In this document: positions 58,267 to 61,372 of the stretch, in pieces
Layout: each line of letters begins with the position of its first letter
Numbering within the stretch: position 1 is the first letter of the stretch
Assembly (NCBI RefSeq): GCF_000447755.1
Contig: NZ_AUNE01000010.1
Location: 62,001-126,000, forward strand
DNA length: 64,000 nucleotides
Direction of reading: 5' to 3'
DNA from: Bacteriovorax sp. BSW11_IV
GTDB taxonomy: Bacteria > Bdellovibrionota > Bacteriovoracia > Bacteriovoracales > Bacteriovoracaceae
The notes under the pieces: generated by a model
Database searches by the model: none
Told to the model about the DNA's origin: nothing
What the model saw: the letters and a program-made list of their open reading frames with translations, nothing else
Program-made: the position numbers and the translations under genes

Positions 58267-58602
58267 ATGAACTTTTTATTGCCCGCACTTATTGGATTGG
58301 CCATAGAAACAGCGGTTCCAATGTCATGTTTCAATTTTGGGGATAACCTACAATCAAGTTTTGTGAGCTGTGTGAATTACAATACGCAAAACATGGCCCG
58401 AGAACTCAATATCTTTTTGCCAACGTGTTTTAACTTTGGCAATGACGTATCTTCAAGCTACACGAGTTGTGTAAATAACAATTTTCAACGCCTAAGTTTT
58501 GAAACGGGTATCTTCGTTCCAAGTTGCTTTAACTTTGGACCAAAAGTACAGTACGGCTTTACAAGCTGTATCAACTCAAATTTCAACTATCTGTCACGTT
58601 AA
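58267..58602 (+). CDS. Small exported protein with three 33-residue cysteine repeats
   Basis: 111 residues. Three near-identical units start at Cys21, Cys54 and Cys87, exactly 33 residues apart: CFNFG, then a second Cys 14 residues later in SSFVSCVN, YTSCVNNN and FTSCINSN. Each unit holds two cysteines and should carry one disulfide. The first residues (FLLPALIGLAIETAVP) form a short signal peptide. ACGAGG lies before the ATG. I know no such family. The stop shares TTAA with the convergent redoxin gene. Confidence 0.72.
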   Translation: MNFLLPALIGLAIETAVPMSCFNFGDNLQSSFVSCVNYNTQNMARELNIFLPTCFNFGNDVSSSYTSCVNNNFQRLSFETGIFVPSCFNFGPKVQYGFTSCINSNFNYLSR

Positions 58603-59183
58603 TATTTAACTGAACAACCATAGGGGCGAGACTTTGCGACAGCAGGGTTCTTGCCTTCTTTTATGCTTGCAATGGCCTCTTTGACATAATTTGACGCCCT
58701 TTTTAAATCACCCTTGTCAGCACTGGCCACACTATCAATGGCCCCCATGTATATGATCTTTCCACTAGGATCAATAATAAAAATCTCAGGAGTTGTCTTA
58801 GCATTATAGGCCCTACCAATATCACCCTTTGTGTCTAAAAGCAGATGATGGGCCTTAGAATCTTCTGAACTTAATTGAGATTTGGCCGCTTCAAAATTTG
58901 CAATATATCCCTGTTTTCCTGGAGCAGATGAAGAAATTGTTAACCATATCATATCTGATGATCGTGCAAGCTCTTGGGTCATTTGCATATTTTTAGAGTC
59001 GTAATGTTTTCTAACAAAAGGGCAACCATCATTGTACCACTCTAGAACAACATGCTTTCCCTTGAAGTCATTCAAAGAAATGCTTTTACCTTCTTGGTTT
59101 ACTAAAGAAAAAGTTGGGGCCAAGTCGCCTGGAGAAAGAGCAAAGGTTAAACTCGTGAATATGTATAAGAGAAAATTAATCAT
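58599..59183 (-). CDS. Exported redoxin/peroxiredoxin-like protein
   Basis: 194 residues, signal peptide MINFLLYIFTSLTFA. Thioredoxin fold of the AhpC/TSA-redoxin type: DLAPTFSLVNQEGKSISL, EWYNDGCPFVRKHY with a single active-site Cys, and TPEIFIIDPSGKIIYMGAID. A single Cys is typical of this redoxin subgroup. It probably acts as a periplasmic thiol peroxidase or a factor for cytochrome or metal maturation. A conserved C-terminal Cys (GCSVKY) could resolve the sulfenic acid. Confidence 0.85.
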   Translation of the reverse strand: MINFLLYIFTSLTFALSPGDLAPTFSLVNQEGKSISLNDFKGKHVVLEWYNDGCPFVRKHYDSKNMQMTQELARSSDMIWLTISSSAPGKQGYIANFEAAKSQLSSEDSKAHHLLLDTKGDIGRAYNAKTTPEIFIIDPSGKIIYMGAIDSVASADKGDLKRASNYVKEAIASIKEGKNPAVAKSRPYGCSVKY

Positions 59184-59284: not shown

Positions 59285-61372
59285 TTAATTTTTGTCTTCT
59301 ACTGGAATATTGATAATGATCTTATTATCATCAACTTCAATATTTTCATCGGCCACAAAAGCATTAAGAATAAGCTGAACTAAAAATCTTGCTGGGATAA
59401 TTTTATAAAAGTACGTATTCTTAACATCCATGACAATTTTCTTCTCCCCTCTCAGGTAGTAGATATTTCCATTAATCGTCACGTGGATAGGAATAAATGA
59501 GAAAACCTCTGGACTAATATTGAGTTTAAAATCAGTGCCATCAACTGACGAAGAGTCAAATGTTACTTTATTAACCCCTTTAATTCCGAAATTCTTAACG
59601 GCATTACCGAATTTTCTCATCGTGCTATCACCGTTATAGATAGACTGCAGTGAATCGAGTTTAATCTTTGTTGAGTGGAGACAATTCTCTAAGATTGATT
59701 CCCAATCATAATTTTTTGCAACATCATATGAGGCATTAAGTGCACAATTAACTTTAAAATTCTTATAAACGTTATCAAAACCATTAAGGACATACTTACC
59801 TTTTGGACTATTGAAACGTAGCTCTCTTTTGTCAATTGACACTTCTTTAATCTGAATCTCACTATCAATTCTTTCATGCTTAATATCAATTGATTGAACA
59901 TTAATCTTCGAACTATCAAAACATCCTCTTAGGATATTTTCAGCAGAAATATCTTCGGTATTCACACGTGAACACTCAATTGAAGGTTGAACAAAATCTA
60001 CTTTAAGAGATCCAAGAGTATCTAAAAAAGTTAAAACGGGAGCATTAAAAATAAGTTTGTTCTTATTTACATTTAAATTTGCTGTTTTTAAGACTATGGC
60101 CGAATTCGCATCTTCCATTGAGAAGTCTTCTATTGAACCAATACTTTCTTCAAAACACCCCTCTGCAATTTGTTGATTTTCAAAACCACCAGAAAAAGGA
60201 ATATTTTTACAACTATAAGAAATATTTTTGATACGATACTGACTACCATCACGCCAAATATTGATATCAGGTGTTTCTAAACGGAGACGATCACCTAAAA
60301 ACTTCAAAGAGGCACTTTCAACTTTTACATGTCCTTTAGCATCATTCATATTGAATTGATTAAGAACAATTGCAGATGAATCCATACAGCCATGAATGAG
60401 ATGATTATACTCAAAACCTTGCCCAAGAGGAGGAAGCTTACAAAAAGCATCAAGGTTAGAAAATTCGATGGTCTGTTCACCGTTAACAATAGAAACATAA
60501 GGGCCCAGAAAGTGCATGCGCTTACCATTAGAGATAAGCTTTTCAACTTCAACTTCCCCACGCATGTCATTATCAGGTGCTTCAAAAACGATACGAGGAG
60601 CGTGAATACTTGCTCTTTCAAGACAAGTGGCCACAGCTAATTTATCATTAAAATCTTTTTGATAATGATTCTTAGGACATTCAAGAGAAACAGTTTCAGT
60701 TCCAACGATAAATGTATCATTGGCCACGGCCAAATTTTGGGCCTTAATGAGAAGTTCTTTTTCACGAACCTTCAAATCTTCAAGACGAAATGAAGTTTGT
60801 GTTAGTCCACTATTGAAAACAATATGCGTGTTACTTTCATTTTTATCAAACTTAGATATAGTTGAATTGTTTAAACAAGACTCAATAATACTTTCGGAAC
60901 CATCAATAATATTATTTTCAAGTCCACAATCAAAATCTATATTTTCGATTAGAAAGGTAGACTCATCAAAATGAAACTCTCCTCTTTCCCCCATAAGATT
61001 CAAACTTAAATCATCTGTAAAAAGAGAAAGATTCTTGAAATCAGCGAATCTGATTTTATCAAATTTTGGGATATCATTAATTGAATATGTAAGTTCGAAC
61101 ATATCGTTATCAAGAATCAACCAATTATCTTTGCGAAATATAGCACCCGAAAATTCAAAATTATTCTTTAAGACAAAATTCGCTCTCGGTGTATTAATTC
61201 TAAAGCTTGGGGCATGTAAATGACCTACAAGTGTTTTTTCAACGAGTTCATGTGGTTGCTTATCTCCTTCATAACGAAGCTCCGAGACCTTTACATCCAA
61301 CTCTAAAGAGTAGGCCATAGAGGGAAGCATTGTTAGAAGGACTAAAAGATTAATTGAATTCACTTTTTTCAT
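59285..61372 (-). CDS. Exported protein with six paired-cysteine repeats
   Basis: 695 residues, signal peptide ending MAYS. All 12 cysteines form six pairs: 149/166, 232/250, 311/329, 388/406, 467/484 and 543/564. First cysteines lie 76-83 residues apart, so this is a tandem repeat of about 79 residues. Each unit has a beta-rich half and then Cys-x17-20-Cys followed by (L/F/M)-x-SS. The C-terminal segment (INGNIYYLRGEKKIVMDV) and a short final unit resemble lipid-binding beta proteins such as DUF2993. It may be a periplasmic or outer-membrane lipid-contact or structural protein. The family is unknown to me. Confidence 0.75.
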   Translation of the reverse strand: MKKVNSINLLVLLTMLPSMAYSLELDVKVSELRYEGDKQPHELVEKTLVGHLHAPSFRINTPRANFVLKNNFEFSGAIFRKDNWLILDNDMFELTYSINDIPKFDKIRFADFKNLSLFTDDLSLNLMGERGEFHFDESTFLIENIDFDCGLENNIIDGSESIIESCLNNSTISKFDKNESNTHIVFNSGLTQTSFRLEDLKVREKELLIKAQNLAVANDTFIVGTETVSLECPKNHYQKDFNDKLAVATCLERASIHAPRIVFEAPDNDMRGEVEVEKLISNGKRMHFLGPYVSIVNGEQTIEFSNLDAFCKLPPLGQGFEYNHLIHGCMDSSAIVLNQFNMNDAKGHVKVESASLKFLGDRLRLETPDINIWRDGSQYRIKNISYSCKNIPFSGGFENQQIAEGCFEESIGSIEDFSMEDANSAIVLKTANLNVNKNKLIFNAPVLTFLDTLGSLKVDFVQPSIECSRVNTEDISAENILRGCFDSSKINVQSIDIKHERIDSEIQIKEVSIDKRELRFNSPKGKYVLNGFDNVYKNFKVNCALNASYDVAKNYDWESILENCLHSTKIKLDSLQSIYNGDSTMRKFGNAVKNFGIKGVNKVTFDSSSVDGTDFKLNISPEVFSFIPIHVTINGNIYYLRGEKKIVMDVKNTYFYKIIPARFLVQLILNAFVADENIEVDDNKIIINIPVEDKN

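What the first reader, a model, noticed from the sequence alone, without database searches (positions are those of the whole stretch)
59285..61372. Six-fold paired-cysteine repeat protein of about 79 residues per unit
All 12 cysteines lie in six evenly spaced pairs (first Cys at 149, 232, 311, 388, 467, 543). Each pair spans 17-21 residues. The protein is exported, starts with a unit without cysteines and ends in a lipid-protein-like domain. This could be a long beta solenoid or bridge across the envelope stabilised by disulfides.
Basis: partly seen in the sequence, partly recalled or inferred. Interest (0 to 1): 0.65.

Follow-up and report, generated by a model that had tools for sequence, protein, structure and literature searches.

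The report
Disulfide-stapled modular lipid-groove protein
A predatory marine bacterium makes an exported protein built from six similar disulfide-pinned units that are predicted to form one long gutter with a greasy inside, probably for carrying lipids between membranes, and its relatives come in natural lengths of one to six units.

Summary
In detail: a 695-aa exported protein whose only 12 cysteines form six pairs about 79 residues apart. It belongs to an unnamed family, nearly confined to one bacterial family (Bacteriovoracaceae-like), whose members hold one to six such units. In 66 family ORFs, 334 of 336 cysteines past residue 60 pair up, and protein length tracks pair number (r = 0.98). 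The genome's size matches the obligate predator Bacteriovorax sp. BSW11_IV exactly. AlphaFold models give each unit four bent antiparallel strands plus a short helix lying between the two cysteines; strands alternate hydrophobic and polar as in TamB. The best-modelled part resembles LptC/LptA, the beta-taco lipid slides. It is neither Lpt nor TamB: the genome holds separate genes for those, and profile comparison gives no homology. Weak hits tie the C-terminal domain of one-unit members to DUF4403, a lipid-binding TULIP family. Best reading: a soluble periplasmic beta-taco, disulfide-stapled, that carries or bridges lipids; length evolves by adding units. The fold is predicted; disulfides, lipid binding, cargo and membranes served are inferred. 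The neighbouring redoxin is not conserved. New variant of a known kind.

The parts
59285..61372 (-). gene of the 695-aa six-unit protein
   Evidence: cysteine positions; no solid Pfam family, no PDB relative by sequence
61307..61372 (-). signal peptide, about residues 1-22 (ending SMAYS before LE)
   Evidence: hydrophobic run followed by a small-x-small site; a crude survey of 66 members gives such a site in 66 of 66 and a lipobox-like motif in 1 (L002, not this protein)
61112..61306 (-). N-terminal module without cysteine, residues about 23-87
   Evidence: sequence; beta-rich but low confidence in the full-length model
60875..61111 (-). unit 1, residues 88-166, Cys 149/166
   Evidence: poorly modelled
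60623..60874 (-). unit 2, residues 167-250, Cys 232/250
60386..60622 (-). unit 3, residues 251-329, Cys 311/329
60155..60385 (-). unit 4, residues 330-406, Cys 388/406; the unit most likely missing from the 5-unit H. marinus relative
   Evidence: most like unit 3; unit-by-unit comparison
59921..60154 (-). unit 5, residues 407-484, Cys 467/484
59681..59920 (-). unit 6, residues 485-564, Cys 543/564; best conserved unit (61-62% identity to the G001 and H. marinus relatives)
59288..59680 (-). C-terminal domain, residues 565-695, with a hydrophobic, probably amphipathic helix near 655-673; shared by the members
   Evidence: relatives' version hit weakly by DUF4403
58599..59183 (-). downstream same-strand exported redoxin (AhpC/TSA); neighbour, not shown to belong to the system
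   Evidence: Pfam Redoxin 6.2e-15; no relative of it beside the related six- and five-unit loci

Best explanation
It is a soluble periplasmic lipid-handling protein shaped as one long beta-taco. Each ~79-residue unit adds four bent antiparallel strands to a continuous gutter; residues facing in are hydrophobic, residues facing out polar or charged. A ten-residue helix closes each unit, and the cysteines at the end of the last strand and the end of the helix are expected to form a disulfide that pins helix to sheet. An N-terminal module without cysteines and a C-terminal domain with an amphipathic helix cap the ends. Acyl chains would ride in the groove, so that the six-unit protein acts as a covalent counterpart of an LptA oligomer, carrying or bridging lipids across the envelope; shorter paralogues (one unit and three units in the same genome) would act as shuttles or shorter bridges. 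Shown: sequence, repeats, paired cysteines across the family, unit-number series. Predicted: fold. Inferred: disulfides, lipid cargo, bridge or shuttle role.
For: Paired cysteines in 334 of 336 cases past residue 60 in 66 ORFs; length = 192 + 86 x pairs, r = 0.98, n = 65. Aligned units (161) alternate hydrophobic/polar: lag-1 autocorrelation -0.36, lag-2 +0.23, shuffle sd 0.12; TamB alignment -0.28/+0.22, LptCA -0.12/+0.10. Model of units 5-6 plus C-terminus, pLDDT 80.6, pTM 0.76; LptC Z 8.0, rmsd 4.3-4.4 A, 119-126 residues; LptA Z 6.9, rmsd 4.5 A, 115 of 135 residues; Foldseek probability 0.72 for LptH and 0.75 for LptA, though E-values only 0.04 and 0.29. DUF4403, a TULIP lipid-binding family by PMC6791001 (passages), weakly hits the C-terminal domain of relatives: 13 of 17 hits in 125 genomes are members. 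DsbB present in the own genome.
Against: No homology to any lipid-transfer family by profile comparison. All DUF4403 hits are below that family's cut-off and the window protein itself has none. Full-length model is only moderate (pLDDT 66.3, pTM 0.48) and residues 1-180 are poor. ApoB, a Bdellovibrio OmpA and TamA score as high as LptC, so the match could be a generic beta meander. No membrane anchor or partner gene found; no conserved neighbourhood.
Confidence: 0.57

Rival explanations
1. TULIP-type lipid shuttle: the C-terminal domain, with the last unit, is a DUF4403/LmeA-like TULIP that picks up single lipids, and the extra units are an extension rather than a bridge.
For: DUF4403 profile hits on the C-terminal domain of members (best 6.1e-5; 13 of 17 hits are members; 4 of 4 at 1e-3 in 356 genomes); one member of 27 weakly matches LmeA (0.086); P47, a TULIP protein, is rank 9 in Foldseek (E 0.048). 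LmeA sits in an operon with a periplasmic thioredoxin in mycobacteria (PMC7643837, passages), like the redoxin here.
Against: All below cut-off; LmeA profile has no match in 125 genomes; VIA rows show LptC/LptA, not BPI-like chains (an absent row excludes nothing).
Confidence: 0.2
2. A rigid disulfide-stapled spacer, tether or adhesin with a single-layer beta sheet, not a lipid carrier.
For: OspA and CPAP single-layer sheets appear among the matches to the full-length model (Z 8-9, rmsd 6-12 A).
Against: Strand alternation is one-sided hydrophobic across 161 units; LptC/LptA fit the better model with lower rmsd.
Confidence: 0.15
3. A highly diverged true member of the AsmA/TamB or Lpt family.
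For: Fold resemblance to LptC/LptA; similar amphipathic alternation to TamB.
Against: hhalign probability 0.5% to LptCA and 0.6% to TamB against 98.6% between one-unit and six-unit members; separate LptCA, LptD_N and TamB genes in the genome; four strands per unit plus helix, not five strands plus loop.
Confidence: 0.08

Closest known systems
LptA / LptC / LptD_N beta-taco (LPS slide)
   Same: predicted bent antiparallel strands forming a groove; LptC Z 8.0 and LptA Z 6.9 with rmsd about 4.4 A; LptA too is a periplasmic beta-taco that elsewhere oligomerises to span the periplasm (PMC10353723, passages)
   Different: several units in one chain; a helix between paired cysteines in each unit; own C-terminal domain; no sequence homology; the genome has its own LptCA fusion and an LptD_N protein
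AsmA-like proteins / TamB / repeating beta-groove (RBG) bridges
   Same: repeat-built groove, hydrophobic inside and polar outside; unit number sets the length
   Different: RBG is described as five strands plus a loop (PMC12066543, passages), here four strands plus helix; no transmembrane anchor found; no homology to TamB
TULIP proteins DUF4403, LmeA (DUF2993)
   Same: weak DUF4403 profile match to the C-terminal domain of relatives
   Different: below cut-off; repeats and cysteine pairs have no counterpart there that I know of (recalled)

Membership tests
LptA/LptC/LptD_N | matches the LptC (PF06835) or LptD_N (PF03968) profile | tested here: not met
   In the own genome the profiles hit contig C12 and C10:238505-238786 only, not this gene at C10:121288-123372; hhalign 0.5%
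LptA/LptC/LptD_N | beta-taco fold | tested here: inconclusive
   predicted resemblance, Z 6.9-8.0, within the range that can be a common arrangement
AsmA/TamB | TamB domain profile PF04357 | tested here: not met
   only hit in the own genome is C38; hhalign 0.6%
AsmA/TamB | N-terminal membrane anchor | tested here: inconclusive
   cleavable-type signal peptide by eye and no 19-mer past residue 80 above mean hydropathy 1.6 in the window protein; no dedicated predictor run
RBG bridge proteins | five strands per repeat ending in a loop | tested here: not met
   units 2-6 have four strands and a helix in the models
RBG bridge proteins | hydrophobic groove along the length | tested here: inconclusive
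   alternation pattern fits; no coordinates were available to trace the groove
RBG bridge proteins | N-terminal chorein domain | tested here: inconclusive
   no Pfam match at E 1; N-terminus poorly modelled
TULIP / DUF4403 | over the Pfam cut-off | tested here: not met
   best 22.4 bits against 28.3; none for the window protein
TULIP / DUF4403 | TULIP core fold | tested here: inconclusive
   P47 at Foldseek rank 9 with low probability 0.20
lipid-transfer proteins in general | binds lipid | not testable with these tools
   needs purified protein

The most novel reading that the evidence does not exclude
In an obligate predator that grows inside its prey's periplasm, this anchor-free gutter family works between cells: secreted, disulfide-stapled lipid slides of tunable length that draw lipids from prey membranes to the predator's outer membrane.
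Probability: 0.06. Interest if true: 0.9.

Novelty: new variant of a known kind. Interest (0 to 1): 0.55.

Why it matters
Bridge or shuttle is a live question for groove-type lipid transfer proteins. Here nature supplies one family with one to six units, sometimes several lengths in one genome, and a cysteine pair in each unit that would let groove stiffness be tested. It would also be a lineage-specific addition to envelope lipid traffic in predatory bacteria, which keep the usual Lpt and TamB genes besides.

Tried and rejected
Single-protein scan of genome contigs found no relative. Sequence search of the PDB: nothing convincing for the protein (best E 0.056) or for the 27-row profile (best E 0.43). 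Pfam: nothing for the protein (PAS_6 at 0.068 is noise) or, beyond noise, for ten members. LmeA profile: no match in 125 genomes. Full-length Foldseek: ten rows under 0.001, DDB1, ApoB100 and LptD, all with TM-scores near 0.1, taken as generic beta meanders. Foldseek on the fragment: no match under 0.001. BPI-, SMP- or TamB-type chains did not appear in the VIA rows; that excludes nothing. Neighbourhood gave no partner: three-unit genes lie between Sua5/SPFH and methylmalonyl-CoA mutase genes, one-unit genes beside a MurG-like glycosyltransferase. No match in plasmids. Promoter scan at chance level. A first set of shifted-unit rows aligned out of register and was not used. Papers: no hit for Halobacteriovorax with AsmA; searches gave no paper on this family that I saw; only listings were read there, apart from passages of PMC6791001, PMC7643837, PMC11656739, PMC11014939, PMC4511183, PMC12066543 and PMC10353723.

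Limits: the 66 ORFs are best-scoring and hand-chosen places, not a random sample; two of them (L060) look like pieces of one interrupted gene. Pairing is greedy, and cysteines in the first 60 residues were left out (except in one L060 piece); the pair counts of L082 and L054 are doubtful as unit counts. Six of 167 units were dropped by length. No negative-control protein was run for the alternation test; choosing hydrophobic columns and then finding them uncharged (0.8% against 33.7%) is partly circular, so I rest on the autocorrelation.

Full report
Window 59285-61372, minus strand, encodes 695 aa with exactly 12 cysteines in six pairs, first-cysteine spacing 76-83 and pair distance 17-21; no random placement out of 1,817,376 met both criteria. 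Unit sequences are weakly alike beyond the cysteines: 7 of 15 comparisons reach z of 4 or more, unit 2 does not stand out.

Host. The genome totals 3,650,096 bases in 59 contigs. PMC4511183 (passages) gives exactly that size for Bacteriovorax sp. BSW11_IV, an obligate predator; the match by size is my identification. Four related loci carry names: Halobacteriovorax marinus isolate 36_234_T64, a Bacteriovoracaceae MAG and two Bdellovibrionales MAGs.

The family. A profile of eight members found matches in 79 of 129 genomes of the bacterial family. A profile of 27 one- and two-unit members found 99 of 368 genomes of the phylum, 97 of them in the same family and 2 outside; reading both lists together gives 107 of 129 for the family. 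Plasmids gave nothing for the window protein. Other phyla could hardly be tested: the two genome-contig scans reach only near patterns.

The unit series. Among 66 ORFs (two of them probably pieces of one gene) 26 have one cysteine pair, 5 two, 23 three, 3 four, 4 five and 5 six by greedy pairing (L082 and L054 are doubtful as unit counts); 334 of 336 cysteines past residue 60 pair up at 10-28 residues, and length fits 192 + 86 x pairs with r = 0.98, n = 65. One five-unit-long member, L052, lacks both cysteines where a pair is due (254 to 428; alignment), as expected if the two work together; this is a single case. The own genome holds three members: six units here, three units on contig C24 (L009) and one unit on C9 (L043). 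One genus, g3, holds neighbouring two-unit genes in G003 and a five-unit gene in G091, so unit number changes within a genus. One-unit and six-unit members are the same family by profile comparison (hhalign 98.6%, E 1e-15).

Structure. The full-length AlphaFold model from five sequences has pLDDT 66.3 and pTM 0.48; residues 1-180 are poor, 180-690 mostly 65-90. Units 2 to 6 each show four strands, many split by a kink, then a helix that lies between the two cysteines. A second model of units 5-6 plus C-terminus (13 rows, part of them other units of the same proteins set in register, which can favour a repeat-like answer) has pLDDT 80.6 and pTM 0.76 and the same make-up. Its highest-scoring solved chains are ApoB (Z 9.8 but rmsd 9.4 A), a Bdellovibrio OmpA (Z 8.9, 7.2 A), TamA (Z 8.4, 3.9 A over 130), then LptC (Z 8.0, rmsd 4.3-4.4 A over 119-126 residues); LptA follows at Z 6.9 (4.5 A over 115 of 135). 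Such Z values can be a common arrangement. Foldseek had no match under 0.001.

Groove. Averaging 161 aligned units gives columns that alternate: lag-1 autocorrelation of hydropathy -0.36, lag-2 +0.23 (shuffle sd 0.12). The TamB alignment gives -0.28 and +0.22, LptCA -0.12 and +0.10. So one face of the sheet is greasy and the other polar, as in beta-tacos.

Not a known member. In the own genome the LptC and LptD_N profiles hit one fused LptCA frame of 347 residues on C12, and LptD_N also an 866-residue frame elsewhere on C10; TamB hits C38. hhalign of the family with LptCA and TamB gives 0.5% and 0.6%. The DUF4403 profile, a TULIP family by PMC6791001 (passages), lands on the C-terminal domain of one-unit members: 13 of 17 hits at 0.05 in 125 genomes, the best twelve all members, all below the cut-off, and 4 of 4 at 0.001 in 356 genomes.

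Mechanism. With about 33 strands at roughly 4.8 A (recalled spacing; strand count), the six-unit protein would be near 16 nm. For scale, PMC11014939 (passages) gives 17.8 nm for the TamB model and PMC10353723 (passages) 55 A for a Borrelia LptA beta-taco. A soluble protein of that length could bridge or shuttle. I prefer a periplasmic lipid carrier or bridge (57%). The own genome has DsbB, so disulfides are plausible. LmeA, also lipid-binding, sits in an operon with a periplasmic thioredoxin (PMC7643837, passages); here a redoxin lies 101 bases downstream, but no relative of it turned up beside the related loci in G001 and L085-L088, so I give it little weight.

Novelty. I know of no described family with a cysteine-paired unit repeated one to six times in a lipid groove; the paper searches are listed under Tried and rejected and are limited to open papers. 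The kind (beta-groove lipid protein) is known, the build is new.

Noticed in passing
58267-58602 (+): A second paired-cysteine repeat protein: 111 aa, three 33-residue repeats (CFNFG...SC), cysteines 21/35, 54/68, 87/101; no solid Pfam match; relatives in 41 of 124 genomes of the bacterial family. Its last 4 bases overlap the end of the redoxin gene on the other strand.
   Followed up: partly
L143 (own genome contig C12) and 26 further ORFs listed: LptC and LptA appear fused in one polypeptide of about 320-375 aa in this phylum: LptC and LptD_N profiles hit the same open frame in many genomes, the own one included.
   Followed up: partly
whole genome G000: Assembly size 3,650,096 bases equals that published for Bacteriovorax sp. 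BSW11_IV (PMC4511183, passages).
   Followed up: yes
L045 7677-8486, L049 6686-7507: The one-unit paralogue lies between a MurG-like glycosyltransferase gene and an HI0933-like flavoprotein gene in both genomes of the genus, yet its own sequence is only 32% identical between them while these two neighbours are 60-64%.
   Followed up: no
L056 6544-7587 and 8493-9527: Two two-unit family genes lie close together in G003, one gene apart.
   Followed up: no
L060 6488-7033 and 7289-8431: A family gene in G080 appears split into two ORFs by an in-frame stop or frameshift.
   Followed up: no
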